Shown: positions 1,298-26,579 of the stretch, in pieces
How positions within the stretch are numbered: position 1 is the stretch's first letter
How the letters are laid out: each line of letters opens with the position of its first letter
NCBI RefSeq assembly: GCF_022899935.1
Contig: NZ_JALJCJ010000005.1
Coordinates: 186,001-250,000 of the forward strand
DNA length: 64,000 nt
Reading direction: 5' to 3'
Source: Shinella curvata
GTDB taxonomy: Bacteria > Pseudomonadota > Alphaproteobacteria > Rhizobiales > Rhizobiaceae
Made by a program: the position numbers and the translations under genes
The notes under the pieces: model-generated
Database searches by the model: none
Told to the model about the DNA's origin: nothing
Seen by the model: only the letters and a program-made list of their open reading frames with translations

Positions 1298-1395
1298 TTC
1301 GGAAAAAGAGAAAATTCCGGTCGCCCGTTCGTAGAGCTTATCGGGGCGCATGGTGAAAGACCGTGCGGATGACAGTTTACGACGGAGTTCATGAC

Positions 1396-3849
1396 ATGAC
1401 ACGGGGATCCATGAAGAGGCTGGCTGGCGTTGGCCGCAGGACGATGCTGGCCGCTATGTTGACGACCACTGCGATTTCCGTTGGGACATTCACGCCGACA
1501 AACGCCCTCGCACAGGTTCACACCTATGCAATCCCCGCAGGCCCGCTCGCTGGGGCACTCGCCGCCTTCGGCCGCCAGTCAGGCACCCAGATCGCCTATG
1601 AGGCGTCCATAGCGCGTGGCAAGATATCGCCCGGGCTTACCGGCTCCATAGGTCGGGAGGAGGCCATCGCCCGCCTCCTCTCCGGTACCGGGCTCAGCTA
1701 TTCCTTCACGGATCCCTCTTCCGTCCTCATCACCGCGGCAAGCGCCGATATTGGTGGCCTTCCGGCCGACGGGTCGACGTCGCTCGAGCGGATCACCGTC
1801 GATAACGAGGGCGAGAGCGCCTGGGGGCGGGTTGACGGTTTCGTCGCGACCCGCAGCGCATCCGGCACGAAGACCGACACGGCACTCGTCGAGACACCAC
1901 AATCGATCTCCGTGGTCACCCACGCCCAGATCGAAAAGCAGGGTGCGAAACGCCTTGAGGATGCGCTCACTTATACGCCCGGCGTCAGCGTCGGCAGCTA
2001 TGGCTTCAATCCGGAGCAGGACTATGTCTTCATGCGCGGCTTCCAGGTTCCGTTCTTCCTCGACGGAACACGCCAATACCGGGACTATATCGTCGGTGCG
2101 CAGCTTGGCGTGGAACCCTATGGTCTCGAGCGCATCGAGACCGTACGCGGCCCGGCTTCCGTCCTCTATGGCCAGATCGCACCGGGCGGAATCGTCAATC
2201 AGGTGGTCAAGCGGCCGACGATCGAGCCGTTCCGCGAAGTTCAAACGACCTTTGGCGACCCTCAACGCCTACAAGCGGCGTTCGATTTCGGCGGTCCCAT
2301 CGATAACGACGGGACGCTGCTCTATCGGCTGACGGGCTTGGGTCGCAACGCAGATGGGCAAATGGATTTTCAGGGCGACGACCGCCTGTTCATCGCGCCT
2401 GCGCTGACGTGGTCCCCGGACGCGGAAACAACGCTCACCGTCTTCGGCCAGTTTCAGCGCGACAAGGACGCCCTGCGGCCGGTCCCCCTGCCGGCCTTCG
2501 GCACGATCTTCCAAAGCATTCATGGTAAGATCCCGCGTGACCGCTTTCTCGGCGAGCCCGGCTTTGACAGTTTCGAGCGTACGCAATATTCACTCGGCTA
2601 TGAATTCGAGCATCATTTCAATGATGGCTGGAGTATTCGCCAGAACTTGCGCTACTCCAATGTCGACCAGACCGAGAACACGTCGCTGATGGCTTTCGAC
2701 TACGGCTCCTTTGCTGTGGATGGGCGCACAGCGGACCGGACCGGCTGGAACGACATCAACGAAATTGGCACATTCGGGGTCGACAACCAGCTTGTCGGTG
2801 AATTTGACACCGGCAATCTGGCACACAAGCTTATCCTCGGCCTCGACTATTCCCGATCACGGAGCGACTGGAGGTTCGCATCAGCAACGCTTTCTCCGAT
2901 CGATGTTTTCGATCCGGTCTACGGCGGCCCCATCGGACCGCTCGTACCGGCTATATCGGAGCTCAAGACGGCAACACAGATCGGTCTTTACGCCCAGGAC
3001 CAGATCGCCTGGGAGAATTGGCGCCTTACCTTCGGCGGTCGCTACGACTGGGCGGAGGGCGTAACGACGGACCGCCTCTGGGCGACGAGCACGACCCAGA
3101 AGGACGAGGCCTTCACCGGCCGTGTCGGTCTCGGCTATCTCTTCGACAACGGCGTTGCGCCCTATATCAGCTATTCCACGTCCTTCGACCCGGAATTCGG
3201 CCTCGACGGCACCGGAACCCCCTTCAAGCCGACAACCGCGCAACAGTACGAAGTCGGCATCAAGTACCAACCCGTCGGCGGCAACAGCTTCTTCACACTT
3301 TCCGTCTTCGACCTGACGCGCCAGAACATTCGCACACGCGACCTCAATCCGCCGCCGACCAACCCCTGGGCTGAGACACAGACCGGCGAAGCACGGGTGC
3401 GCGGCCTGGAGGCCGAGGCAAGAATCAGCATAACCGACCGCTTCGATTTCGTCGGTGCCTATACTTATCTCGATTCCGAAATCACCAAGAGCAACAATCC
3501 CGATCTCGGGATGCCTCTCTTCCTGACGCCGAAACATCAATTCTCGCTCTGGGCAAACTACACGATCGAAGACGGTCCGGCAGCAGGTCTCGGTGCCGGT
3601 GTCGGCGTCCGATATCGCGGCAGTGTCTGGGGGTCGGGCCATGAGATCGAGGTCCCGTCCCACACTCTTTTCGACGCGAGCCTGACCTACGATTTTGGCA
3701 AGAAAAACCCGGACTTGGCCGGGCTCGACCTCACGGTTAGCGCGCGCAACCTCTTCGACAGAGAGTACGTTTCGACCTGCTCGTTCTGGGAGGGCTGCTT
3801 CTACGGAGAGGGCCGGAACGTCACGGCAACGCTGAAGTACCGCTGGTAG
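1396..3849 (+). CDS. TonB-dependent siderophore receptor with STN signalling domain (FecA-type)
   Basis: An outer-membrane ferric-siderophore transporter of about 817 residues that also signals to FecR. After a signal peptide (cleavage near TNALA-QV) comes the STN domain (HTYAIPAGPLAGALAAFG through LLSGTGLSYSF), then the TonB-box/plug region (ETPQSISVVT, LEDALTYTPGV, VRGPASVLYGQIAPGGIVN) and a beta-barrel ending in the expected aromatic residue (TLKYRW). The ATG at 1396 has CGGAG 8 bases upstream; GTG 1363, ATG 1369 and ATG 1411 are alternatives. It is the third gene of the sigma-FecR-receptor set. A cysteine pair near the C-terminus (TCSFWEGCFYGEG) probably forms a loop disulphide. The ligand cannot be read from the sequence. 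Confidence 0.92.
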   Translation: MTRGSMKRLAGVGRRTMLAAMLTTTAISVGTFTPTNALAQVHTYAIPAGPLAGALAAFGRQSGTQIAYEASIARGKISPGLTGSIGREEAIARLLSGTGLSYSFTDPSSVLITAASADIGGLPADGSTSLERITVDNEGESAWGRVDGFVATRSASGTKTDTALVETPQSISVVTHAQIEKQGAKRLEDALTYTPGVSVGSYGFNPEQDYVFMRGFQVPFFLDGTRQYRDYIVGAQLGVEPYGLERIETVRGPASVLYGQIAPGGIVNQVVKRPTIEPFREVQTTFGDPQRLQAAFDFGGPIDNDGTLLYRLTGLGRNADGQMDFQGDDRLFIAPALTWSPDAETTLTVFGQFQRDKDALRPVPLPAFGTIFQSIHGKIPRDRFLGEPGFDSFERTQYSLGYEFEHHFNDGWSIRQNLRYSNVDQTENTSLMAFDYGSFAVDGRTADRTGWNDINEIGTFGVDNQLVGEFDTGNLAHKLILGLDYSRSRSDWRFASATLSPIDVFDPVYGGPIGPLVPAISELKTATQIGLYAQDQIAWENWRLTFGGRYDWAEGVTTDRLWATSTTQKDEAFTGRVGLGYLFDNGVAPYISYSTSFDPEFGLDGTGTPFKPTTAQQYEVGIKYQPVGGNSFFTLSVFDLTRQNIRTRDLNPPPTNPWAETQTGEARVRGLEAEARISITDRFDFVGAYTYLDSEITKSNNPDLGMPLFLTPKHQFSLWANYTIEDGPAAGLGAGVGVRYRGSVWGSGHEIEVPSHTLFDASLTYDFGKKNPDLAGLDLTVSARNLFDREYVSTCSFWEGCFYGEGRNVTATLKYRW

Positions 3850-4600: not shown

Positions 4601-7033
4601 TTAGAACGTACGTTTCAGCGAGAGCGTTGCGCTACGCCCCTCTCCATAAAAGACGGAGTTGTAGAAACCCATCGTCCGGAAGTATCGCTTGTCCGCGATG
4701 TTGTACACGTTCAGATTCAATGACGTCTTGTCGTCGAAATCGTAACGTAGCATGGCGTCGAATATCGCGTAGCTCTCCTGTTCGATGCTCTGCGACGCAT
4801 CAAGATAATGCGCGACATTCGCGGTCTTGCTCTGCCAGCGCATTGATCCACCGATCACTAGCTTCTCCCATTCTCCCGGGAAACGGTATGTTCCCCCCAG
4901 TTTCAATGAGCTGCGGGGTTGGAACGTGTTGACCGCATTGCCGTCATTGTCCTGCGCATCCCGATAGGTGAAGCCGGCAAAAAGATTGAGGCCGTCATAG
5001 ATTTCGCCAGCGACCTCAAATTCGAACCCGCGCGTCGTCGTTCCGTCAATCGAACGATAAACGGCACGCTGGTGGTCCATATCCCATGTGACGTATTCGG
5101 CAACGTCCTTTTGATCCGTCTGGAACACAGCAAAAGACGCATTCACCCGATCATCGAAGAGAGAAGCCTTGATCCCGACCTCGTAATTATGGCCATACGC
5201 CGGCTGTAGATAGTTGCCTTCTACATCCTGATAGGTCTGCGGCTTGAAGATGTTCGTATAGCTTGCGTAAAGCGTATGCTGATCGGTCAGATCGTAAGTG
5301 ATGCCAGCGTAGGGCGTGACGACGCCAGAGTGTTTGTAGTCGAAGTTCTCCCAATAGCTTGCGAGTTTGCCGTCCCAGTAGTTGATCCGGGCGCCGCCGA
5401 TGAACGATAATTCGTCCGTCAGCGACAATCGCGCGGCACCGTAAATCCCGAACTGCCGGGTCGCGGTGTCCCGAACGTTATTGTACTCGTCTTTCCATTC
5501 GGGTTCCGGGTAGTCGCCCGTCCACTCGAATATATTGCCGATCGGATGTTCGCTGCCCACCTGCTTGCGCTCGATGACCCGCCCGCTGGTGCGCGAAGCA
5601 AAGGCACCGACGACAAACTCATGCGTTCTGTCATAGGCTTCAAATTCGCCGTTCAGGCTTCCGGAGAGCGAGTCCTGCTTTCGATCCCCATCATAAAGCG
5701 TTGTAAAACCCAAAACGCCAAGGCCGGTTACCGGATCGGGATTCCCCTCCATTATTATCAGGGGAGCATAAAAGTCGTTTTGCGCATGATTATAGGCAAA
5801 TCGCGCCTTCCAGTCGTTCTCGAATGTGTGATCGAGTGCGAGAAAGCCTTCGGTTGCGACCGTGTTCCAGCCGGACCACGGTGTTCCCGTCGTTGATCCT
5901 TTCGGCCAATCGATAAGGTTGCCCAGGGAATCGAAGGCCGGCAACCCGGCCCATGTCGTGCCGGTGGAATCCGTTTCCTGCCGGTTTGCCCCTACGGTTA
6001 TTGTCGTTGCGTCACCAATATCGGCCTCGACAATACCGAAGAGGACATTCTTTTCCTGCTTGTAGAGATCGATCGTATCTTCCCTGGTCTGCAAGGCACC
6101 GACAATTCGCCCGCGCACCGTGCCCTCGCTGTTGAGCGGGCCTGCGACATCCATCTCCGTTCGATAATTGGAATTGGTTCCTGCCAGACCGGAAACATAG
6201 CCTTTGAATTCATCCGCCGGCCGCTTGCGAATGAAGTTGATCGAAGCTCCAGGCTCGCCGGTATTCTGCATCAATCCGGTCGCGCCCCTTACGATTTCGA
6301 TGTGATCGTAGATCACCGTATCAAGCATGCCGTCACCGTACTGGTACGTGGCGTCAAGCGTTGTCGGCACGCCGTCATATTGATAGCTGTCAATCTCAAA
6401 GCCACGCGAATAGAAGTTCAACCGGTCGGTTTCAGCCTGATTGACCGTTACGCCCGTGGCGTTCTCCATCACGTCCCGCAGAGCCGTCATTCCCCGGTCC
6501 TCGATCAACCGGCGTGTTATGACGCTCGTCGACTGAGGGGTTTTCCGCTGTGGCAATGCCAGGCCATTGGCCGTTTTCATCCACTCGGCAGTGTAGGAAC
6601 CGGTTCCCTCGGTGACGGCGCCCTGGCCTTGCACGGTGATGGCCTCGAGAACGGTCGAATCGGCGCCGCTCGATCCAAGTTCGGCTTGGCTCAAATCGAA
6701 GATCGCGACGGTATTGGCGCTGGTGAAATTGTGCCGAAGACCCGAGCCGGCAAGGAGCGTGGAAATCGCCTGCGAGGCGGTCATCGAGCCGCGAACGGGC
6801 TGCCCTGTTGCCGAGGCGATGGCGGTCTCGGGGAAAACCACGTCGATGCCGCTTATCCGAACGATATCGTTGATCGCCTGACGAATCGGCTTGGCGGAAA
6901 TGTTGAACTGATAGACCTGCGCCGTGGCTTGTGCGAATGCCGCTCGGTATCCAACGCCGTCGCCACCACCCACCGTCAAGATCGTCGTTGCCAGCAGAAC
7001 AACCAGTCTCCTGCGGCTCATTGCCTTACTCAT
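4601..7033 (-). CDS. TonB-dependent siderophore receptor with STN signalling domain
   Basis: An outer-membrane ferric-siderophore receptor of about 810 residues. It has a signal peptide ending near AAFAQA, an STN domain (YQFNISAKPIRQAINDIV, LLAGSGLRHNF), a plug with the siderophore-receptor pattern (LPQRKTPQSTSVITRRL, MENATGVTVNQAE, IVRGATGLMQNTGEPGASI) and a barrel ending SLKRTF. The ATG at 7033 (MSKAMSRRRLVV) gives a clean signal peptide; the frame stays open to 7105, but the extra residues look non-coding. Downstream on the same strand is an ECF sigma factor; upstream are a FecR gene and another sigma gene. The plug resembles pyoverdine/ferrioxamine-type receptors, but the substrate is inferred only to class level. 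Confidence 0.92.
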   Translation of the reverse strand: MSKAMSRRRLVVLLATTILTVGGGDGVGYRAAFAQATAQVYQFNISAKPIRQAINDIVRISGIDVVFPETAIASATGQPVRGSMTASQAISTLLAGSGLRHNFTSANTVAIFDLSQAELGSSGADSTVLEAITVQGQGAVTEGTGSYTAEWMKTANGLALPQRKTPQSTSVITRRLIEDRGMTALRDVMENATGVTVNQAETDRLNFYSRGFEIDSYQYDGVPTTLDATYQYGDGMLDTVIYDHIEIVRGATGLMQNTGEPGASINFIRKRPADEFKGYVSGLAGTNSNYRTEMDVAGPLNSEGTVRGRIVGALQTREDTIDLYKQEKNVLFGIVEADIGDATTITVGANRQETDSTGTTWAGLPAFDSLGNLIDWPKGSTTGTPWSGWNTVATEGFLALDHTFENDWKARFAYNHAQNDFYAPLIIMEGNPDPVTGLGVLGFTTLYDGDRKQDSLSGSLNGEFEAYDRTHEFVVGAFASRTSGRVIERKQVGSEHPIGNIFEWTGDYPEPEWKDEYNNVRDTATRQFGIYGAARLSLTDELSFIGGARINYWDGKLASYWENFDYKHSGVVTPYAGITYDLTDQHTLYASYTNIFKPQTYQDVEGNYLQPAYGHNYEVGIKASLFDDRVNASFAVFQTDQKDVAEYVTWDMDHQRAVYRSIDGTTTRGFEFEVAGEIYDGLNLFAGFTYRDAQDNDGNAVNTFQPRSSLKLGGTYRFPGEWEKLVIGGSMRWQSKTANVAHYLDASQSIEQESYAIFDAMLRYDFDDKTSLNLNVYNIADKRYFRTMGFYNSVFYGEGRSATLSLKRTF

Positions 7034-8810: not shown

Positions 8811-9258
8811 TCTTTGGCGCTCGAGCACAAAGCCCTCGTGCTTAAGGTTCCACACTCGATGCAAATGTCGAGCGTAAAAGTCAAGTTATGATTCAATTTT
8901 TCGGAATTGATTGTTGCAGCGCGCGGCTATGGCAGACAAGCTCATACGGTCGGACGGAATGGGAGGAGTGGTGGTCGCGCAACCTGACCGAGCTCTCAGA
9001 GACGTGACTGGATGCTTTCTGATGTTCGAGCCCCTGCAAAAGCGTAGAAAGAGGCCGCGTTTGGGCATCTTAGGCACTGGCCCGCATCACCACCCGCATT
9101 CGCTTTCACTGCAACGAAAACCTCTGAGCTGCGCTTAACAAGCGTCGGCCTATAGGTGGTCCATTCAATTTGACGCCATTGCTAACTCAAAAAACATGAA
9201 TACAATAATCATGTTTATAGCAAAAGCGCTGTAGCTCAACTCCTGTTTTGGGTCTCGT
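8811..9258. other. gene-free divergent intergenic region
   Basis: This 448-base stretch separates the leftward sigma gene from the rightward AraC gene and must hold both promoters. The part next to the AraC gene (about 9170-9250) is clearly more AT-rich than its surroundings and contains an inverted repeat annotated separately. No convincing coding frame was seen: the short frames present do not resemble known proteins. A near match to the rhizobial iron-responsive operator (TGA-N9-TCG instead of TCA) lies at 8888-8902. Confidence 0.6.
9192..9216. promoter_or_regulatory. inverted repeat, candidate operator upstream of AraC-type regulator
   Basis: AAACATGA at 9192-9199 and TCATGTTT at 9209-9216 are perfect 8-base inverted arms around a 9-base AT spacer. 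The site ends 42 bases before the regulator's ATG, in an AT-rich promoter-like stretch. AraC regulators of the PchR/YbtA group bind short repeats near their own and their target promoters, so an autoregulatory site is plausible. Arms of this length also arise by chance several times in 64 kb; position is the main argument. Confidence 0.4.
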
Positions 9259-10221
9259 ATGCAAGAGTGGTCTCCCTATCGCGACACTCCCGAGCGAGAC
9301 AGTCCCAATAATTTAGTTCTTATCCAGGACATCATTGACACTGCGAGCCACGATCATGACACGGCTTTTGCGGTCGGGTACTATCGTGCCCACACGCTAT
9401 CGCCGTTTCTGCAATATCTCGATTGTGACCTTAAAACGACCAAGGGGCTGTACAGCGAGGGCACGTTCGCCCCGGGGATATGCCTAAGCCATGCCATGAG
9501 CGGCCGCTGGAACAGCTGGCTGGGTGGACAAGCTGTGGAAATGCAGGCCGGCGACGACGTCTTGGTATATGGCAGCGGATCGGATTTGCCTTTTACGGAA
9601 TCGCAACCCGATAACGCCCGGATTAAAATGTCCGCACTTTACGTGGGCGCAGAGTTTTTTGAGAGCGCTGCCAGCGTTAGCGACATGCCTGCTGAGCTTT
9701 CTGGCCTCCTACGTGATGGCAAACTCAGCGTACTGCAGCTATCCAACGCAGGTGCCTTAAGATCAATCCTGCAGCGGATGCATAATAATCCCTATAGTGG
9801 CTATCTGGCGCGTTTGCATATGGGCAGCCTGGGACTTGCGGCGGTCGTAGAACTGGCTTCATGCCTTGGCGGAACCAAACAAACCAATGCCGTGCCAGGT
9901 CGGCGGCGTGACCTGGCTCACGAAGCCAAGCTTTATCTCGATGCTCACGTTGCAGACCTGCCAGCGATGGCTACAATCGCCGCCAATCTCGGTACCAACG
10001 AGAGTAGTCTTCGCCGCGCTTTCAAGCAGTCCTTCGGCATCTCGATGACGGAATATGTGCGAGACCGCCTTCTGGAAGAGGCTCGGCATCTCGTCAGAGA
10101 AGGTAGATTGCATATCGCGGAGATCGCCTACAGGAGCGGTTTCTCCGATCCAGCGAATTTTACCGCAGCTTATCGGCGACACTTCGGGCATCCACCGAGC
10201 GCGGAACGTCTCCGCCGGTGA
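9259..10221 (+). CDS. AraC family transcriptional regulator, PchR/YbtA-like
   Basis: A 320-residue regulator with a ligand-sensing N-terminal half (about 1-210) and a C-terminal AraC/XylS double helix-turn-helix (about 225-315: DLPAMATIAANLGTNESSL, then IAEIAYRSGFSDPANFTAA and FGHPPS). Regulators of this architecture (PchR, YbtA, AlcR) bind a siderophore or its ferric complex and switch on the matching uptake genes. It is the first gene of a rightward set followed by an MFS carrier, a TonB-dependent receptor and two ABC half-transporters, which is exactly the gene company of PchR and YbtA. The ATG at 9259 gives the full-length protein. An inverted repeat lies about 43 bases upstream. Confidence 0.88.
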   Translation: MQEWSPYRDTPERDSPNNLVLIQDIIDTASHDHDTAFAVGYYRAHTLSPFLQYLDCDLKTTKGLYSEGTFAPGICLSHAMSGRWNSWLGGQAVEMQAGDDVLVYGSGSDLPFTESQPDNARIKMSALYVGAEFFESAASVSDMPAELSGLLRDGKLSVLQLSNAGALRSILQRMHNNPYSGYLARLHMGSLGLAAVVELASCLGGTKQTNAVPGRRRDLAHEAKLYLDAHVADLPAMATIAANLGTNESSLRRAFKQSFGISMTEYVRDRLLEEARHLVREGRLHIAEIAYRSGFSDPANFTAAYRRHFGHPPSAERLRR

Positions 10222-10330
10222 CCGAATTGCACAACTCTTATCCCGGCGCACACAAGTAACAACCGTGGCGAGCCCACAGCTGATTATCTAATGAAATCCG
10301 GAGCCCGATCAGTCTCCGGAGGCAAAGCAC

Positions 10331-11593
10331 GTGCGGGCGGACGCGACAGAAAAAGACGATGATTGGCGTATACATGCGGGAAGCGGCGCGTTCTATGCTG
10401 CGACAGCCATCCCGATGTCCTACTTCTTCTACCTCCTGCCGGCGCAACTGCGTCAGTATGAGCATTCGGCGGAAACAATAGGTCTGCTGGCGCTTGTTTA
10501 CCTGCCGTATGCGCTGCGGGTTCTCTGGGCGCCGCTGGTCGACGGCTGGTGCCATCATCGACCAGCAAGATATCGGACGGTGATGATAGCGGCCGTCCTT
10601 GCCGCAGCAGCCGGCACGCTCGGATTGGGTGCAGTGGAGCCCACGCAGGATGTTGCGGCGATCATCCTGATCGCATTTACAATCTTCATTGCCTTATCCA
10701 CCGGGACCACTGCGCTAGATGGCTATACGATCGCCATGCTCGGCAGTATGGCCCGACGCCGTGCCAGCATCGCGCAAACGGTCGGTTTCACGACCGGCGG
10801 AATCGGGCTGGGCATCGGTGCGATGCTCACCGACGGATTTGAGTGGAGAGCAGTCACCACGTTGATCGCAGTAACGATGCTGGTCGCGGCCATTCCGGTC
10901 CTGCGAATGCCCGGAAACCGGCGGCAGGCAATTCCACCAGCGGAACAAGCCGATGGGGTGGGAGACAGGCGCGGCCTCCTCGATTTCTTCCGTCGGGTGG
11001 AAACACGTCGGCTGCTTCTGTTATCGCTTCTCGTGAAATTGGGCGTGGGCATGATCGCCGGATATCTCCCCGTGTGGCAGGTAGACGCGGGTGTATCGGC
11101 GAGCCAGGCTGGGTTCTTCGGCGCGGTCGGAAGCAATATTCTTGGCCTGTTGATGGCCTTGACCAGCGGCTATTTTCTGCTGCGCTGGGACGGTTGGCGG
11201 ATAACCGCCGGGCTATGTGTACTTGCTGCTGTTGTTTTTGCTTTCGTGGGGTTGTTCCACACGGTGCTGGCGGGGCCGGTTATGGCCGTGTCCATGTCGC
11301 TCGTTTTCCTATCCATAGGCTATGCCTACATCGCGCCATTCAAGGCGTTATCGCTGGATTTAAGCGATAGCGAACAGGCCGCGACAAAAGCGGCAATGTT
11401 GGCTTCGTTTGATTTGACCCTGTCGATATTGGCGGCCTCCGTCTCCGGTTTTCTCGTTGCCGTGCTCGGCTTCGGAAATTTCCTCTGGGTGTCTGCGGCC
11501 CTGTGCCTTGCCGGTGCCGGCACTGCCTTTGCGGCGTCAAGGAACCGCCGCTGCTTCACGAAATCCGAATATACAAATGAAAGGTTGGGCTGA
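10331..11593 (+). CDS. MFS transporter, RhtX/FptX-like siderophore carrier
   Basis: A 420-residue major facilitator with about 12 hydrophobic segments. The N-terminal pattern (ATAIPMSYFFYLLPAQLRQ, YLPYALRVLWAPLVDGW, DGYTIAMLG) resembles the RhtX/FptX inner-membrane carriers that bring rhizobactin or pyochelin across the cytoplasmic membrane, and YbtX beside the yersiniabactin transporter. The start is GTG at 10331, with GGAGG 8 bases upstream. The 3' end overlaps the receptor gene start region (11577) by 17 bases, so translational coupling is likely. Siderophore transport is inferred from sequence pattern and neighbours; the compound is unknown. Confidence 0.82.
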   Translation: MRADATEKDDDWRIHAGSGAFYAATAIPMSYFFYLLPAQLRQYEHSAETIGLLALVYLPYALRVLWAPLVDGWCHHRPARYRTVMIAAVLAAAAGTLGLGAVEPTQDVAAIILIAFTIFIALSTGTTALDGYTIAMLGSMARRRASIAQTVGFTTGGIGLGIGAMLTDGFEWRAVTTLIAVTMLVAAIPVLRMPGNRRQAIPPAEQADGVGDRRGLLDFFRRVETRRLLLLSLLVKLGVGMIAGYLPVWQVDAGVSASQAGFFGAVGSNILGLLMALTSGYFLLRWDGWRITAGLCVLAAVVFAFVGLFHTVLAGPVMAVSMSLVFLSIGYAYIAPFKALSLDLSDSEQAATKAAMLASFDLTLSILAASVSGFLVAVLGFGNFLWVSAALCLAGAGTAFAASRNRRCFTKSEYTNERLG

Positions 11594-13802
11594 CGTGCTG
11601 ATATACAATGCCAGGATTGCTTTGCTCGCAACTTCAATGCTGACCGGGATGGCTACGGCATTCCATACAATGCCAGCCGCGGCCCAGGATCCGGGAGATG
11701 AAGACGTCACCGTCCTGGAGCCCGTTACCGTGACTGCGAGAAAACGGGAAGAACGGCTTAAGGATGTGCCGATATCGGTCCATGTAGAGAGTGGAAAGGC
11801 ACTCGAACAGCGACGGGCATTCGACGGGCAGTCGGTGATGCGTGAGGTGCCGGGGGCCAGCCTGGGCACATTTGGCGACCGATCCAATGGTTTTGTTGTC
11901 ATGCGTGGCGTCGCCCCCATCCTGTCACCGCTAAGCCCGGATGACAGCTCCGTCCTGACATTCATCGACGGGATGCCATTGCCCATCGGGGCGTCGTTTT
12001 CGTCGCCATTCATCGACCTCGAGCGGGTTGAGATACTGAAGGGACCACAAAACACCCTGTTCGGGCGCAACACGTCAGGTGGTGCGATCAACCTTATTCC
12101 AGCGGAGCCGACACACGAGTTTAGCAGCTCCATCCTGGGTGAGTTCGGGACGGATGGACTTTATCGGACCGAGGCAATGGTCAACGGCTCCATCCTGCCC
12201 GACGTACTGGCCGGGCGGCTGGCTCTGCGGCGTTCCTCGATCGATGGGCACATCGACAACATCGCTGGCGACACGTTGGGTGCGGATGACAGCTGGGTAG
12301 GTAGGGGATCACTCCTCTTCACGCCCACGGACGATACACGCTGGCTCATGAGCTTCCTGGGTGAAGACACGAACACGACGCCGACCACTTATATCGCCTA
12401 TCGGCCGGAAGGGGAGAAGCTCGCTGCGCAGAACGTCACGATGGACGACACACGGATGTACGCCATCAATTCGCGCTTTGAGCATGATTTCGAGACAATG
12501 ATGCTGACGGTCCAGACCGGGTACTCGCGCCTGCGCAACAGCAACTACTACAACTATCCGGATGCTAATATCGCTAGTGACTTCAGCGGTTTGCCGCCCG
12601 AGATGTTCCTCGATCCCGCAACGAACTTCATCGGCTGGGAAAAACGGGATACGCGACTTTCGCAAGAGGTTCGCCTCTCCTCGTTACCCGGTTCCGACAT
12701 CGCCTGGGTAGGTGGTATCTCGCTGTATCGGGATAAGGCCGAACGCATACGTCCGGTCGAGATGTGGTATTTCGGGCCATCGGCGACTGGCACATCCACC
12801 TATCAACAGACGACGATCGGCAAGGCGATTTTCGGCGAAGCGACATTTCCGGTGGCGGACCGTCTCAAGCTGACGGTCGGCGCGCGAGCCACGCATGAAT
12901 CGAAGGATTTCAACGGCGAGTTCTTCAGCGACGGGTCGAATGGCGCGGTTCCATATTTCGCGGAGAACGGACAGCAAAGCTATTCCTTTTTCACCGGCCG
13001 GGCCGCGCTCTCCTACGAGTGGTCACCGGAGATGATGACCTATGCCAGCATTTCGCGCGGCTACAAGAGCGGCGGTTATGCCATCAACAATTCCCTTGTC
13101 TGGGGTGGCGTGGCGAGAAATCCCTACGAATCCTCGACGGTGATCAGCTACGAGGCCGGCGTGCGGTCGTCATGGCTCGATGAAGAGTTGCAGTTGAATG
13201 GTGCCGTCTTCCTCAATGATATGCGTGACGAGCAGATGCAGACCTGGGACTACACCAATTTTACGGGTAGCGGCGTAAATCTGGATGCCCGCAGTGCAGG
13301 CTTGGAGCTGGATGCCAGCTACCGGCTTTCGCCCAACTGGACGCTGGATGGAGGGCTTGCATACACATTCAGCGAACTTCGGCACGTTTCCGCCGAAGCG
13401 GCAGCGGCACAGGATGGCCTCAAAGACGGCAACTGGCTGCCTACGGTGCCCCGCTGGTCGGGCAAGGCTTCGATAAACTATCAGGCGGAAGGCAGCGAAC
13501 TTGGATTGAACGGTATGCTGGCCGACAAGATGTTCAATGCCCGGCTTTCGTACAACTTTATCGGAACGCGCTATACGGATGCATCCAATTTTGGAAAGCT
13601 TGAGCCCGCCCATATCGTTTCCGCAAGGCTGGCTGTCGACTGGGGAGGTGGCGAAGCCTACCTTTTCGGCGACAATCTTCTCAACCGGGAATTCATGACC
13701 ATCAAGGAACGCATGGGCACCGATGCTGCCGGTGCTCCCGTGTTTGGTGTCTCCTACGCGCGGGGCATGACCTTCGGCGCAGGCGTGAACTTGCGGTTCT
13801 GA
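11577..13802 (+). CDS. TonB-dependent receptor (FyuA/pesticin-receptor type context)
   Basis: An outer-membrane TonB-dependent transporter of about 741 residues. A signal peptide ends near AAAQD, followed by a TonB-box/plug start (VLEPVTVTARKREERLKDVPISV), plug motifs (VERVEILKGPQNTLFGRNTSGGAIN split across the plug) and a barrel ending GAGVNLRF. It has no STN domain, so unlike the two receptors to the left it is not expected to signal through FecR; the AraC gene at 9259 would sense the ligand inside the cell. The plug is of the general TonB receptor group that includes FyuA. ATG 11577 overlaps the MFS gene end; GTG 11595, just after the MFS stop and with AAAGG upstream, is an alternative start. 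Confidence 0.88.
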   Translation: MKGWADVLIYNARIALLATSMLTGMATAFHTMPAAAQDPGDEDVTVLEPVTVTARKREERLKDVPISVHVESGKALEQRRAFDGQSVMREVPGASLGTFGDRSNGFVVMRGVAPILSPLSPDDSSVLTFIDGMPLPIGASFSSPFIDLERVEILKGPQNTLFGRNTSGGAINLIPAEPTHEFSSSILGEFGTDGLYRTEAMVNGSILPDVLAGRLALRRSSIDGHIDNIAGDTLGADDSWVGRGSLLFTPTDDTRWLMSFLGEDTNTTPTTYIAYRPEGEKLAAQNVTMDDTRMYAINSRFEHDFETMMLTVQTGYSRLRNSNYYNYPDANIASDFSGLPPEMFLDPATNFIGWEKRDTRLSQEVRLSSLPGSDIAWVGGISLYRDKAERIRPVEMWYFGPSATGTSTYQQTTIGKAIFGEATFPVADRLKLTVGARATHESKDFNGEFFSDGSNGAVPYFAENGQQSYSFFTGRAALSYEWSPEMMTYASISRGYKSGGYAINNSLVWGGVARNPYESSTVISYEAGVRSSWLDEELQLNGAVFLNDMRDEQMQTWDYTNFTGSGVNLDARSAGLELDASYRLSPNWTLDGGLAYTFSELRHVSAEAAAAQDGLKDGNWLPTVPRWSGKASINYQAEGSELGLNGMLADKMFNARLSYNFIGTRYTDASNFGKLEPAHIVSARLAVDWGGGEAYLFGDNLLNREFMTIKERMGTDAAGAPVFGVSYARGMTFGAGVNLRF

Positions 13803-13806
13803 GAGC

Positions 13807-15600
13807 ATGACGACGCAAGCCGGGGAGTCCCAGCAGGTCAACTATCTGGCAAGTCTCCAGCTTTTTGCACCGCATCTGCGCGGCTCACGGATTAAATTCG
13901 TGGCCGCCGTCATGCTCGCAGTTATAGCTGTCTTTCTGGAACTGCTGCCGATATGGGCGGCATATCGACTGCTCAGCGACGCCATCGTCGGTGAACTGGA
14001 ATGGCCAGAGGCAATCAAACTCGTAAGCTTCACAGCCGTTGCGACAGCTTCAGGCTTTGTCGCAATGGGCAGCGCTCTCGCTCTTTCCCACATCGTCGCT
14101 TTTGACGTCATCTATCGACTGCGGTCCGCTCTCGCCCGTCATATGGCCACCCTGCCGCTTGGCCTCTTCGCCACAAGGCGCAGCGCTGATGCAAAGAGAC
14201 TCATTGTCGATGGGCCGGAACAGTTGGAGGCAGTCATCGCCCATGGGCTTCCCGAAGGTATCAGCGCAGTGGCGAGCTGGATCGCGGTCTCGCTCTGGCT
14301 GTTTGCAATGGACTGGCGCATGGCACTCGCCACGATATTCGTAACGCCGATATCCTTGGCCCTGCTGGCGTTCGCCACCGCAAGAGGCGGGCGTCGGATG
14401 GCCGCCTATCAGGCGGCGAATGCACGAATGAATGCTGCAACCAGCGAGTATCTGGCAGGCATGCCGGTCGTCAAAATTTTCAACCGCACCGGCGAAAGCT
14501 TCAAGGACGTCAGTGACGCGGTATGCGACTACGCCCGGATCGAAACCGCCTGGGGTCGTGACTATCTTCCGATGGGCAGCACGTCGCAGACCCTCGCGCT
14601 CGCCAACATCGTGTTTATTCTGCCCATAGGGATGATCCTGCTGCAAGCGGGATCGCTCGACCTCGGCACGTTGCTCTTCTTCGTCATTCTCGGCGCCACA
14701 TACAGCCAGCCACTTCTGCGGATGTTCAATCAGCTTCACCCGATTGCCCATATCAGCACCGATGCCATGGAGATCATAGAGTTCCTCGCACTGACACCAC
14801 AGGCGGACATCGGCAAACCATCGAGCCTTGCCCATCATGATGTCACTTTTGAGCGGGTCTGCTTTGGCTACGAGGGAAAAGAGGTCCTGCGCGACATTTC
14901 GTTCACGGCGAAAACCGGGGAGGTAACGGCGCTGATCGGCCCTTCCGGCTCGGGCAAGAGCACGATTGCCAGCCTCATTCCTCGGTTTCATGACGTGCAA
15001 CACGGCCGTATCACCATCGGCGGGATTGACGTTCGGGATATGAGGCTCGAACAGCTGTTGGACACGGTCGCCTTTGTGTTTCAGGACACGTTTCTGTTTT
15101 CCGAAACCATTGCGGCGAACATTCGCTTCGGGCGGGCCGACGCATCGGATGCCGAGGTGGCGGCGGCTGCCACAGCCGCCCGCGCCAACGATTTCATCCT
15201 CGCTCTGCCGAATGGATATCAAACTGTGATTGGTGCCAGCGGCCACCGGCTGTCGGGCGGCGAGAGGCAGCGCATCGCCATAGCACGTGCCATCCTGAAG
15301 GATGCACCAGTGATCATCCTGGACGAGGCCACCGCTTTCGCCGACCCGGAGAATGAGGCGCTTATCCAGGACGCGCTTGGTGCCCTCAGCAAAGGGCGGA
15401 CACTGATCATGGTGGCGCATCGGCTGCATACGACCCGGTTCGCCGAACAGATACTGGTGGTAGCCGACGGGAGCATAGCCGAGTGCGGCCGGCATGACGA
15501 CCTGCTCACCCGCAACGGGCGGTACACTCGCCTCTGGAACGACTACATCGACACGGGGACCGGCATGGCAAGATCCTCCGACGGAGGCATCGCATCATGA
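13807..15600 (+). CDS. ABC transporter, fused permease/ATPase, YbtP/IrtA-like
   Basis: A 597-residue half-transporter. A six-helix ABC membrane domain occupies about residues 20-320, and the ATPase domain has Walker A (GPSGSGKST, about 377), signature LSGGE (about 482) and Walker B (VIILDEA, about 501) followed by TAFADPENE, a wording typical of the siderophore-importing exporters-by-fold YbtP and IrtA. The ATG lies 4 bases after the receptor stop, and the 3' end overlaps the next ABC gene by 4 bases (ATGA), so the pair is translated together and almost certainly forms a heterodimer. In the Ybt and mycobactin systems such heterodimers import ferric siderophore despite an exporter fold; import here is inferred. 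Confidence 0.88.
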   Translation: MTTQAGESQQVNYLASLQLFAPHLRGSRIKFVAAVMLAVIAVFLELLPIWAAYRLLSDAIVGELEWPEAIKLVSFTAVATASGFVAMGSALALSHIVAFDVIYRLRSALARHMATLPLGLFATRRSADAKRLIVDGPEQLEAVIAHGLPEGISAVASWIAVSLWLFAMDWRMALATIFVTPISLALLAFATARGGRRMAAYQAANARMNAATSEYLAGMPVVKIFNRTGESFKDVSDAVCDYARIETAWGRDYLPMGSTSQTLALANIVFILPIGMILLQAGSLDLGTLLFFVILGATYSQPLLRMFNQLHPIAHISTDAMEIIEFLALTPQADIGKPSSLAHHDVTFERVCFGYEGKEVLRDISFTAKTGEVTALIGPSGSGKSTIASLIPRFHDVQHGRITIGGIDVRDMRLEQLLDTVAFVFQDTFLFSETIAANIRFGRADASDAEVAAAATAARANDFILALPNGYQTVIGASGHRLSGGERQRIAIARAILKDAPVIILDEATAFADPENEALIQDALGALSKGRTLIMVAHRLHTTRFAEQILVVADGSIAECGRHDDLLTRNGRYTRLWNDYIDTGTGMARSSDGGIAS

Positions 15601-17411
15601 TGAAAGCCGGCAACCGAAAAAGCCATGCGGGCCACTCCAAAAGCTCCGACTATCATCGATTGCAGCGCCTGTGGAGCCTGGCAGGCCGGCAACGGGATGG
15701 GGTGCTGCGCGGAATTCTCTATCGTTTCGCTCAGTCAATCAGTCTTGGCTTTGCTCTCGTTGCCGTCATCCTGGTTGTCGAGACCACCGGAGAGGGAGGC
15801 CTGATCACCCCGACAGATTTTCTGCTTGTTACCCTGCTGCTGGCACTGTCCCTGGCCGGCCAGCTCGTGTTCGGTTATCTGGCTTCGGCCAACAGCTGGA
15901 CGGCAAGCTTTCAGGTGAGCAGAGATCTGAGATTGTCAATACTCGACCGCCTGCGCGCTTTGCCGCTCGGACAGCATATGCCGCAACATCGCGGCGATCC
16001 GGTCACCCTCGTCACTTCGGATATAAAGGTGGTGGAGACGTTCCTGGCCGATGCACTTCCGCGGCTGGCACAGGCATTCGGCATTCCGGTTGTGGCCATC
16101 GCTCTGCTGGTCTGGGTCGATGTCGGGCTTGCGATGGTTGCCCTTGTATCAATCGTCCTGTCTGCTCCAGTATTCCTCTGGTCGAGCCGCAGGCTGGCAG
16201 CCCTCGCCTTGCGGAGGCAGGATCTGCAGGCGGAAGCATCAGCCCGAATGATAGAATATGCGCGGGGCATCGCCGTCATCAAGGCGTTCAACCGGATCCA
16301 CGCCGGCCAGAAAAGCTTTCACAAGGCCCTGATCGACTTTCGCGATGTATCTGTCCGCATCGTGCATCATCTGGTCTTCCCTCTGATCGCCTTCGGCGTC
16401 GTCCTCACGACCGGCGTCCCGCTGCCTATCTTTGTAGCGTGCTTGCGTTTTTTCGACGCAGATATCGACCAGAATACCCCGACTGTCGCCATTGTTCTCG
16501 TCTTCTCGATCTACACACCGCTCCTTTCCTTGATCGGCGTCATGGAGATTTCCCGTCTTGCGGATGCAGCGCTCGTCCGCTTCGACCGGATCATGATGCA
16601 GACGCCGCTGCCCCAACCATGTTTTCCGAGCGAGCCGCGCGGCTTTGCACTGAAATTCGATCGCGTGCAGTTCGCATACGGCCTTGGGCAACCGGTGCTG
16701 AAACAGGTTACATTCGAGGTGCCCGAAAAATCCGTGACGGCGATTGTCGGACCCTCCGGCGCTGGAAAAAGCACTCTTCTCAATCTGCTGCCGCGCTTCT
16801 TCGACGTGGATGACGGCGCCATTCTTATTGGTGGCGTCGATGTGCGTGAAATCTCAGCCGAGCGGCTGAACGACTTGATAACCGTTGTGTTCCAGGAGGT
16901 TTATCTGTTCTCGGGTACGATCCTCGACAACATAGCGATCGGCCGAATGGGAGCAGATGAGGTTGATATCCGGGCCGCAGCGAAAGCAGCCCTGGCCCAT
17001 GATTTCATCATGGCGCTGCCTGACGGATACGCCACCAGGGTCGGCGAGGGAGGGTCCCGGCTCTCCGGCGGCGAACGACAGCGTATCTCGATCGCACGTG
17101 CAATCCTAAAGGATGCCCCGATCGTCCTGCTCGACGAAGCAACGGCCGCGATCGATGCGACCAGCGAGCGTGAAATCCAGCGAGCCCTCTCGCACCTGGT
17201 TCAGAACAAGACCCTTGTTGTGGTGGCGCACAAGCTTTCGACCATCAGACACGCACACCAGATCATTGTGTTGGACCAGGGCGGCGTCGTCGAAATCGGA
17301 TCCCACGAAACGCTCGCCGAAGCCGGCGGTCTCTATCAGAGGCTTTGGCGCCGGCGTCTTCAATCGTCAAATTGGCGCGTAACCGACGCTAATCTATCAG
17401 CCGCCAAATGA
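15597..17411 (+). CDS. ABC transporter, fused permease/ATPase, YbtQ/IrtB-like
   Basis: A 604-residue half-transporter that pairs with the product of the gene it overlaps at 15597-15600. The membrane domain is about residues 30-330; the ATPase has Walker A (GPSGAGKST, about 384), signature LSGGE (about 489) and Walker B (IVLLDEA, about 508), all intact. It closes the rightward five-gene set regulator, MFS, receptor, ABC, ABC. No siderophore synthesis gene (NRPS, salicylate synthase, thioesterase) adjoins it, which argues that the set scavenges a compound made by other organisms or made elsewhere in the genome. After its stop the next gene faces the opposite way. Confidence 0.87.
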   Translation: MMKAGNRKSHAGHSKSSDYHRLQRLWSLAGRQRDGVLRGILYRFAQSISLGFALVAVILVVETTGEGGLITPTDFLLVTLLLALSLAGQLVFGYLASANSWTASFQVSRDLRLSILDRLRALPLGQHMPQHRGDPVTLVTSDIKVVETFLADALPRLAQAFGIPVVAIALLVWVDVGLAMVALVSIVLSAPVFLWSSRRLAALALRRQDLQAEASARMIEYARGIAVIKAFNRIHAGQKSFHKALIDFRDVSVRIVHHLVFPLIAFGVVLTTGVPLPIFVACLRFFDADIDQNTPTVAIVLVFSIYTPLLSLIGVMEISRLADAALVRFDRIMMQTPLPQPCFPSEPRGFALKFDRVQFAYGLGQPVLKQVTFEVPEKSVTAIVGPSGAGKSTLLNLLPRFFDVDDGAILIGGVDVREISAERLNDLITVVFQEVYLFSGTILDNIAIGRMGADEVDIRAAAKAALAHDFIMALPDGYATRVGEGGSRLSGGERQRISIARAILKDAPIVLLDEATAAIDATSEREIQRALSHLVQNKTLVVVAHKLSTIRHAHQIIVLDQGGVVEIGSHETLAEAGGLYQRLWRRRLQSSNWRVTDANLSAAK

Positions 17412-26502: not shown

Positions 26503-26579
26503 TGGTAGCGGAGGAGGGATTCGAACCCCCGACACAAGGATTATGATTCCTCTGCTCTAACCTACTGAGCTACTCCGCC
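26503..26579 (-). tRNA. tRNA-Met (CAT anticodon)
   Basis: Read on the minus strand, the sequence folds as a complete tRNA: acceptor GGCGGAG/CTCCGCT, D stem GCTC/GAGC, anticodon stem GAGGA/TCCTT around the loop ATCATAA with anticodon CAT, T arm with GTTCGAATC and an encoded CCA (26503-26505). The G1-T72 pair and the general form fit elongator methionine tRNA; a lysidine-modified Ile-2 tRNA also has CAT and is the alternative. Its 3' end faces the iron gene region to the left. Confidence 0.9.

What the first reader, a model, noticed from the sequence alone, without database searches (positions are those of the whole stretch)
9259..17411. Yersiniabactin/pyochelin-type uptake cassette without biosynthesis genes in a rhizobial genome
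Five same-strand genes encode an AraC regulator of the PchR/YbtA type, an RhtX/FptX-like MFS carrier, a TonB-dependent receptor and two overlapping ABC half-transporters with the YbtP/IrtA wording TAFADPENE. This is the uptake half of a Ybt or Pch locus in one block, with no NRPS or salicylate gene in the window. It has two alternative inner-membrane routes (MFS and ABC) side by side. Inference: a self-contained scavenging module for a siderophore made by neighbours, sensed in the cytoplasm by the AraC protein.
Basis: partly seen in the sequence, partly recalled or inferred. Interest (0 to 1): 0.75.

Follow-up and report, generated by a model that had tools for sequence, protein, structure and literature searches.

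The report
Mobile iron-siderophore scavenging gene cassette
A bacterium of the genus Shinella carries a compact five-gene kit that most likely imports an iron-carrying molecule made by other microbes; in relatives the pump is conserved while the parts that choose the molecule appear to be swapped, which would make it a natural example of modular iron theft.

Summary
The five genes are real and in the stated order: AraC, MFS, TonB receptor, two overlapping ABC half-transporters. The ABC pair groups with siderophore importers: among solved single half-transporters ABC-A scores best with YbtP and IrtA, ABC-B with YbtQ and YbtP, and a tree separates both halves from seven other ABC half-transporters of this genome (100/100). 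In this genome no condensation domain and no salicylate or isochorismate synthase was found. Its own siderophore locus looks petrobactin-like and has its own receptor.

The cassette looks iron-regulated. A 14/16 match to a published RirA operator lies 46 bp before the AraC gene; 8 of 13 related AraC upstream regions hold TGA-N9-TCA (shuffles: mean 0.98, none of 3000 reaches 8).

Similar receptor-ABC sets, without synthesis genes in the stretches read, sit on Bartonella, Rhodovulum and Neorhizobium plasmids; another Shinella has one beside a salicylate-type NRPS/PKS cluster. Between two loci the ABC halves are 75-79% identical, but receptor, MFS and AraC only 28-31%.

Best reading: a xenosiderophore cassette with exchangeable recognition parts. 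Substrate unknown. The 'Ybt/Pch' label fits the ABC pair; receptor, MFS and AraC are only distant relatives.

The parts
9192..9216 (+). Palindrome holding TGAATACAATAATCAT (9197-9212), 14/16 identical to a published RirA IRO box; 46 bp before the AraC start
   Evidence: consensus TGACTAAAATAATCAT from PMC10510648 (passages)
9259..10221 (+). AraC-family regulator, 320 aa: cupin-like N-domain plus double HTH
   Evidence: HTH_18, HTH_AraC; AlphaFold2 mean pLDDT 88.9; Foldseek hits to AraC-family proteins and cupins
10331..11593 (+). MFS transporter, 420 aa, near the RhtX/FptX and AmpG families but below both cut-offs
11577..13802 (+). TonB-dependent receptor, 741 aa, distantly FyuA-like
13807..15600 (+). 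ABC half-transporter A (YbtP/IrtA side), TAFADPENE
15597..17411 (+). ABC half-transporter B (YbtQ side)
26503..26579 (-). tRNA-Met; matches to 20 other Shinella genomes begin at its 3' end, and the variable DNA that holds the cassette lies to the left

Best explanation
A stand-alone import cassette for an iron-siderophore that this bacterium does not make. The receptor takes the ferric complex through the outer membrane. The A/B heterodimer, a type IV (exporter-fold) ABC importer like YbtPQ/IrtAB, moves it or its iron into the cytoplasm, with the MFS protein as a second or helper route. The AraC protein senses the ligand inside and switches the genes on, and RirA represses the operon when iron is plentiful. 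The ABC pair is the conserved engine; receptor, MFS and AraC are the exchangeable recognition set. Shown here: gene content, ABC clade, operator-like site, no NRPS or salicylate genes found in the genome, stand-alone relatives. Inferred: import direction, iron-siderophore substrate, sensing, RirA binding, division of labour between MFS and ABC.
For: ABC-A scores 329 bits with YbtP and 328 with IrtA against 265 for the next single half-transporter shown, TM_0288; ABC-B 274 with YbtQ and 270 with YbtP against 250 for SAV1866. Tree of 30 rows: the seven other ABC half-transporters of this genome split off 100/100, A clade 99/99 (12 rows), window in an 8-row A subclade (100/100) and a 7-row B subclade (100/98). 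Condensation domains: 0 in this genome. The two chorismate-binding enzymes are PabB and anthranilate synthase. In a 235.6-kb stretch of the contig the two best matches to the IRO box (15/16, 14/16) lie before the AraC genes of a second cassette and of this one. Stand-alone sets. A relative of the ABC pair (51-52%) lies beside a salicylate-type NRPS/PKS cluster in Shinella sp. WSC3-e. Receptor kin (32%) lies next to an IrtA-type SIP-ABC in the same genome.
Against: No ligand or uptake data. The receptor of the synthesis-linked Shinella locus is only 31-33% identical, so its substrate cannot be carried over. The margin over exporters is small for ABC-B (274 against 250), and neither IrtA nor IrtB is among the 60 hits shown for it. 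Eukaryotic ABCB chains have higher whole-protein totals in both searches because two halves are summed. NCBIfam models hit hardest are exporters such as MsbA, those shown all below cut-off. TGA-N9-TCA is missing before 5 of 13 AraC genes, among them both in the Shinella WSC3-e locus. Of the three other carrier genomes tested, G126 has no condensation domain but G255 has 2 and G293 has 4, on other contigs.
Confidence: 0.74

Rival explanations
1. Remnant of a complete siderophore locus: the lineage once made the compound and lost the synthesis genes, keeping the uptake half, which still works.
For: ABC kin sit beside NRPS clusters in Shinella sp. WSC3-e, Pantoea sp. At-9b and Chroococcidiopsis.
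Against: No condensation domain or salicylate gene found in the genome; the nearest kin by gene set (Bartonella, G255) are stand-alone too; the cassette was not seen beside the tRNA-Met in 20 other Shinella genomes (19 by tblastn on flanks of 2.3-20 kb; one by blastn on 139 kb).
Confidence: 0.22
2. The cassette imports the strain's own petrobactin-like siderophore made by the NIS locus on contig C14.
For: The genome has two IucA/IucC genes with AMP-ligase, DUF6005 and TIM-barrel genes, resembling fecI-fecR-fprA-asbABCDEF-fatB of Sinorhizobium fredii (PMC8822346, abstract and passages). The NCBIfam families nearest to that locus's own receptor are heme-type, below cut-off, so its role as petrobactin receptor is not proven.
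Against: That locus has its own FecI, FecR, TonB receptor and periplasmic binding protein. YbtPQ/IrtAB-type importers are known for NRPS-made siderophores (recalled; PMC10967856 abstract and one section read, PMC10246721 search listing only).
Confidence: 0.06
3. The ABC pair is a drug or lipid exporter that happens to lie beside a receptor.
For: Exporter fold; highest NCBIfam scores are exporter families such as MsbA, below cut-off; small margin for ABC-B.
Against: Importer halves beat exporter halves; well-supported separation from seven other ABCs of this genome; tightly packed genes, and the same order ara-mfs-tbdr-abcA-abcB recurs in G255.
Confidence: 0.05
4. It handles a metallophore for zinc, copper or nickel rather than iron.
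For: Yersiniabactin and pyochelin systems also deal with copper and zinc (PMC8725597 and PMC11481552, search listings only).
Against: IRO-box-like operators before the AraC genes point to the iron regulon.
Confidence: 0.1

Closest known systems
Pyochelin uptake set of Pseudomonas (FptA, FptX, PchR, PchHI)
   Same: Receptor + MFS + AraC + ABC heterodimer; FptX and PchHI both reported necessary for PCH-Fe uptake (PMC10846271, abstract and introduction read)
   Different: There PchHI and fptX are co-expressed in the pyochelin biosynthesis cluster (same paper); here no such synthesis genes were found. Sequences of the Pch proteins were not compared here
Yersiniabactin uptake set (FyuA, YbtPQ, YbtX, YbtA)
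   Same: ABC halves score best with YbtP/YbtQ among solved half-transporters (A also IrtA); FyuA is the best solved receptor match (110 bits)
Mycobacterial IrtAB
   Same: Type IV ABC import heterodimer; ABC-A 328 bits with IrtA
   Different: The window's ABC-A has no SIP domain, and ABC-B shows no IrtB among its 60 best; a true SIP-fused IrtA lies elsewhere in this genome
Rhizobactin 1021 uptake set (RhtA, RhtX, RhrA)
   Same: Receptor + MFS + AraC trio in Rhizobiaceae (recalled)
   Different: RhtA model 28.7 of 1100 and RhrA model 20.1 of 500 bits; no ABC pair of this type there (recalled)
Rhodovulum, Bartonella, Neorhizobium plasmid cassettes and the G255 cassette
   Same: The same kinds of parts, no synthesis genes within the stretches read
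   Different: Receptor, MFS and AraC differ strongly between them

Membership tests
YbtPQ/IrtAB-type ABC siderophore importer | Two half-transporters, TMD-NBD each, adjacent genes, distinct A and B lineages | tested here: met
YbtPQ/IrtAB-type ABC siderophore importer | Closer to solved YbtPQ/IrtAB than to exporter half-transporters | tested here: met
   (clear for ABC-A, 329 against 265; narrow for ABC-B, 274 against 250, IrtA/IrtB not among the 60 shown). Separation from 7 other ABCs of the genome; YbtPQ and IrtAB themselves were not in that tree
YbtPQ/IrtAB-type ABC siderophore importer | Imports a ferric siderophore | not testable with these tools
   needs uptake assays
FyuA receptor family | Sequence membership | tested here: inconclusive
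   FyuA is the best PDB hit at 109.5 bits, next 59; below the cut-off of TIGR01783 (141 of 223.5)
RhtX/FptX MFS subfamily (TIGR02718) | Score over the curated cut-off 356 | tested here: not met
   88.8 bits; AmpG family model 86.8
PchR/YbtA/RhrA AraC regulators | Match to a specific family model | tested here: not met
   RhrA model 20.1 of 500 bits; other hits are HTH-only, below cut-off. No PchR or YbtA model was among the 25 hits shown
AraC ligand-binding regulators in general | N-terminal cupin-like domain plus C-terminal double HTH | tested here: met
   (whole-model TM-scores are low, 0.26-0.36 for the AraC-family leaders; single domains match better)
RirA regulon | TGA-N9-TCA operator near the promoter | tested here: met
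   motif as quoted in PMC8822346 (passages)
RirA regulon | RirA binds and represses | not testable with these tools
   EMSA / rirA mutant needed; presence of rirA in this genome was not searched
Yersiniabactin/pyochelin biosynthetic locus | NRPS condensation domains and salicylate/isochorismate synthase | tested here: not met

The most novel reading that the evidence does not exclude
The ABC pair is a broad-specificity siderophore import engine. Bacteria re-target it by exchanging a recognition set (receptor, MFS carrier, AraC sensor) as a block, and some add a second set to the same engine. This would make a plug-in system for stealing many different siderophores, passed around on plasmids and variable chromosomal regions and wired into each host through an IRO box.
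Probability: 0.35. Interest if true: 0.65.

Novelty: new variant of a known kind. Interest (0 to 1): 0.47.

Why it matters
Siderophore cheating is usually discussed for receptors alone. Here a whole uptake path, with sensor and importer, occurs without synthesis genes. The contrast between a conserved importer and very different recognition parts makes a direct test possible of where siderophore specificity lies, and of how an exporter-fold importer chooses its cargo. A Shinella with a salicylate-type NRPS cluster and a related ABC pair offers a candidate producer in the same genus.

Tried and rejected
Isochorismate synthase suspected at C15:300146: rejected, it is PabB (634 bits, cut-off 452). 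Window as part of a plasmid: judged unlikely; the right side is collinear with a 4.6-Mb Shinella record (deposited as 'plasmid') and with 3.5-3.7-Mb Sinorhizobium records, and its first 1.4 kb is found in all 21 genus genomes. Attachment-site repeat for an island: a 28-base tRNA 3'-end pattern with up to 3 mismatches occurs once in the genome, so no left border was found and 'island' rests on variability alone. Synteny by the genome-contig scan with ABC-B: only 3 distant matches (25-30% identity); not used further. Samples of class and phylum gave no receptor beyond our own genome at E<=1e-120 (1 of 385; 1 of 398; own counted), so distribution came from the family sample and the plasmid collection. 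Placement of the receptor relative to receptors of synthesis-linked loci was not resolved (long branches, quick method). Repeats near the cassette as AraC sites: only weak two-copy repeats. Siderophore-type lysine/ornithine N-oxygenase in the genome: two weak Pfam matches (26.6 and 20 bits), not followed. The first operator count (8 of 10 regions) used regions picked after a look at 22 regions and left out two short AraC upstream regions and the Pantoea one; one search repeats it with all 13 AraC upstream regions of the compared loci (8 of 13). Literature: the searches listed no paper that I recognised as describing this stand-alone cassette; subscription papers are not held.
Full report
WHAT IS THERE. 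Five + strand genes occupy 9259-17411: an AraC-family regulator (320 aa), an MFS protein (420 aa, GTG start), a TonB-dependent receptor (likely ATG at 11577, 741 aa, overlapping the MFS end by 17 bases), and two ABC half-transporters (597 and 604 aa) whose genes overlap by four bases. Pfam domains agree. ABC-A holds LDEATAFADPENE, ABC-B LDEATAAIDATSE.

IMPORTER OR EXPORTER. Among single half-transporters of the PDB, ABC-A scores best with YbtP (6p6i_A, 329 bits) and IrtA (328); the next one shown, TM_0288 (an exporter half, recalled), has 265. ABC-B scores 274 with YbtQ and 270 with YbtP against 250 for SAV1866 and 246 for MsbA; neither IrtA nor IrtB is among the 60 hits shown for it. Longer eukaryotic ABCB chains have higher totals in both calls because two halves are summed. 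The 25 NCBIfam families shown for each half are all below cut-off, the highest being MsbA. I compared 12 A rows, 11 B rows and the 7 remaining ABC half-transporters that one search found in this genome; these seven are called exporter-type here by default, their function was not tested. In the tree of these 30 rows the seven split off at 100/100, the A clade has 99/99, and the window's halves sit in an 8-row A subclade (100/100) and a 7-row B subclade (100/98). YbtPQ and IrtAB themselves were not in the tree; a Pantoea pair from a salicylate-NRPS locus and this genome's own IrtA-like pair were. TAFADP is in 8 of 12 A rows, 0 of 11 B rows and 0 of 7 others. I take import as likely; direction is not shown.

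THE OTHER THREE PROTEINS ARE LOOSER FITS. The receptor's best solved relative is FyuA, 109.5 bits, the next 59, and it is below the siderophore-receptor model's cut-off (141 of 223.5). The MFS protein scores 88.8 bits with RhtX/FptX (cut-off 356) and 86.8 with AmpG (cut-off 350). The AraC protein matches general HTH models; RhrA gives 20 of 500 bits. Its AlphaFold2 model (26 sequences, mean pLDDT 88.9) has a cupin-like N-domain and a double HTH, and Foldseek finds AraC-family proteins (ToxT, CuxR, Rns, AraC) and cupins, with low whole-model TM-scores. Of the 19 best AraC relatives, 6 share a longest-contig length with listed receptor relatives and 2 with listed ABC-B relatives (only the upper parts of those lists were compared, and equal contig length is a hint of one contig, not proof). 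One of the 6 is nearly identical to this genome's own protein.

NO SYNTHESIS GENES FOR AN NRPS SIDEROPHORE FOUND. The genome (6.07 Mb, 19 contigs, 99.99% complete) shows no condensation domain. Its two chorismate-binding enzymes are PabB and anthranilate synthase. Two weak matches to the lysine/ornithine oxygenase family were not followed. There is an NIS locus on C14 with FecI, FecR, a TonB receptor, two IucA/IucC proteins (one fused to an AMP-ligase), a DUF6005 protein, a TIM-barrel protein and a periplasmic binding protein. The order resembles the petrobactin operon fecI-fecR-fprA-asbABCDEF-fatB of Sinorhizobium fredii (PMC8822346, abstract and passages read). NCBIfam families nearest to its receptor are heme-type, below cut-off. 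The locus has its own receptor, so it is a weak candidate for this cassette's ligand.

IRON REGULATION. At 9197-9212, inside a palindrome (9192-9216) and 46 bases before the AraC start, lies TGAATACAATAATCAT. The RirA-bound fhuA box is TGACTAAAATAATCAT (PMC10510648, passages): 14 of 16 agree. It is the best match in the 64-kb window, and in a 235.6-kb stretch of this contig only one match is better, 15/16, before the AraC gene of a second cassette. I first counted TGA-N9-TCA in ten AraC upstream regions, chosen after a look at 22 regions: 8 hold it, shuffles give 0.80 on average and at most 4, TGA ranks first of 64 triplet palindromes, and spacings 5 to 14 other than 9 give at most 3. Repeated with all 13 AraC upstream regions of the compared loci, 8 hold it; dinucleotide shuffles give 0.98 on average, at most 5, and none of 3000 reaches 8. 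The five without it are the second Bartonella AraC (84-bp gap inside the set), Neorhizobium, both of Shinella WSC3-e, and Pantoea. The regions are not independent: six of the 13 come from related AraC pairs at one locus. The bare motif also occurs 27 times in the window against 12 expected, so the argument rests on position and on the 16-base match. PMC8822346 reports the motif in 5 of 10 RirA ChIP peaks. I did not search for rirA in this genome.

RELATIVES. In 394 genomes of the family, own included, the receptor is found in 7 at E<=1e-80 and ABC-B in 4 at E<=1e-140. G255 has the same five-gene order plus a divergent second AraC-receptor-MFS set. In the plasmid collection ABC-B hits 11 records at E<=1e-80; I read the locus in 6 of the 11 (two of four Bartonella, one of three Rhodovulum, one of two Shinella, Neorhizobium, Chroococcidiopsis). 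Bartonella plasmids carry AraC AraC MFS TBDR TBDR MFS ABC ABC, in different surroundings on a 283-kb and a 56-kb plasmid. Rhodovulum has AraC (other strand), MFS, TBDR, ABC, ABC. Neorhizobium has a receptor, an MFS-like gene and the ABC pair; the gene I took as its AraC is annotated hypothetical and is 37% identical to an annotated AraC of Shinella WSC3-e. None of these has synthesis genes annotated within the stretch read. Linked to synthesis, by annotation, are Shinella sp. WSC3-e (NRPS/PKS genes, SidA/IucD-type monooxygenase, isochorismate synthase and lyase), Pantoea sp. At-9b (salicylate synthase and NRPS) and Chroococcidiopsis (NRPS). Of the eight A rows in the window's subclade, six are stand-alone sets with a receptor (two of them near-identical Bartonella copies), one is linked to synthesis, and one (G293) is a remnant with a broken ABC-B and no match to the receptor in 19.9 kb. 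Whole genomes: G126 (the Bartonella, by its contig length and coordinates) has no condensation domain, G255 has two and G293 four on other contigs. G255's lie in an NRPS/PKS gene row where I saw no obvious salicylate gene in 19.9 kb, judged from ORF starts only.

PARTS APPEAR SWAPPED. G255 and Rhodovulum share ABC-A at 75% and ABC-B at 79%, but receptor 28%, MFS 31% and AraC 28%. The window and Bartonella share 56, 52, 62, 41 and 38% in the same order. Rhodovulum's receptor, MFS and AraC are instead 50%, 50% and 45% identical to the receptor-MFS-AraC set of this genome's second cassette, which suggests that the three move together. Receptors evolve fast, but the G255-Rhodovulum contrast is too large for drift alone in my view; no formal test was made.

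WHERE IT SITS. The tRNA-Met at 26503-26579 marks a border. In the 20 other Shinella genomes searched the match to the right-hand DNA starts between window 26490 and 26503, at the tRNA 3' end. In the left flanks of 19 of them (2.3 to 20 kb; two short, 2.3 and 5.8 kb) none of the five proteins is found at E<=1e-30; in the 20th, which by its coordinates is Shinella sp. PSBB067, blastn of 139 kb to the left shows no match over 200 bases to the cassette. Flanks differ from genome to genome where I looked. No attachment repeat was found. In the 7 other Shinella genomes of the family sample, receptor and ABC-B are absent anywhere at the thresholds used; the rest were checked at this site only.

JUDGEMENT. 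An uptake-only, iron-regulated importer cassette that has moved between replicons is the best reading. Its parts are of known kinds and its MFS-plus-ABC layout has a functional precedent in pyochelin (PMC10846271). What I have not seen described is the stand-alone, modular form across Alphaproteobacteria. The ligand is unknown. A salicylate-capped NRPS siderophore is my leading guess, from the linked ABC relatives, at about even odds.

Noticed in passing
L017 5937-8495 (-) and 4231-5940 (-), contig C18 of the same genome: A full-length IrtA (SIP/FAD domain fused to ABC, 746 bits to 6tej_A) with an IrtB (438 bits) beside TonB receptors and AraC genes; 88% identical copies in two other Shinella records. 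A mycobacterial-type importer in a Gram-negative with TonB receptors.
   Followed up: partly
L039 1554-13921, contig C15:127.5-139.9 kb of the same genome: A second cassette: ABC pair with receptor and AraC, plus a divergent AraC-MFS-receptor set and an FAD-binding-enzyme gene; a 15/16 IRO box before one AraC gene.
   Followed up: partly
C15:179.9-211.0 kb (L040 9881-12352; window 1369-3849, 4601-7021, 11577-13802, 22879-25023): Five TonB receptors in about 31 kb, with FecI/FecR genes and FecBCD-type ABC systems: an iron-uptake hot region.
   Followed up: partly
window 26503-26579: tRNA-Met is a variable junction in Shinella: 21 of 21 genomes share the right side while the left sides read differ; some carry recombinase-like ORFs beside it, judged by eye.
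   Followed up: partly
L067/L107, Shinella sp. WSC3-e plasmid pbSHIWSC3 16-52 kb: NRPS/PKS cluster with isochorismate synthase, isochorismate lyase and SidA/IucD-type monooxygenase by annotation; looks like a mycobactin-like siderophore locus in a rhizobial relative.
   Followed up: partly
L038 6153-18465, contig C14: Petrobactin-like NIS locus with FecI/FecR and receptor, with an IucA/IucC protein fused to an AMP-ligase.
   Followed up: partly
L066 7324-10872 (G293): ABC pair of the same subclade with the B gene interrupted and no receptor match nearby: a decaying cassette.
   Followed up: no
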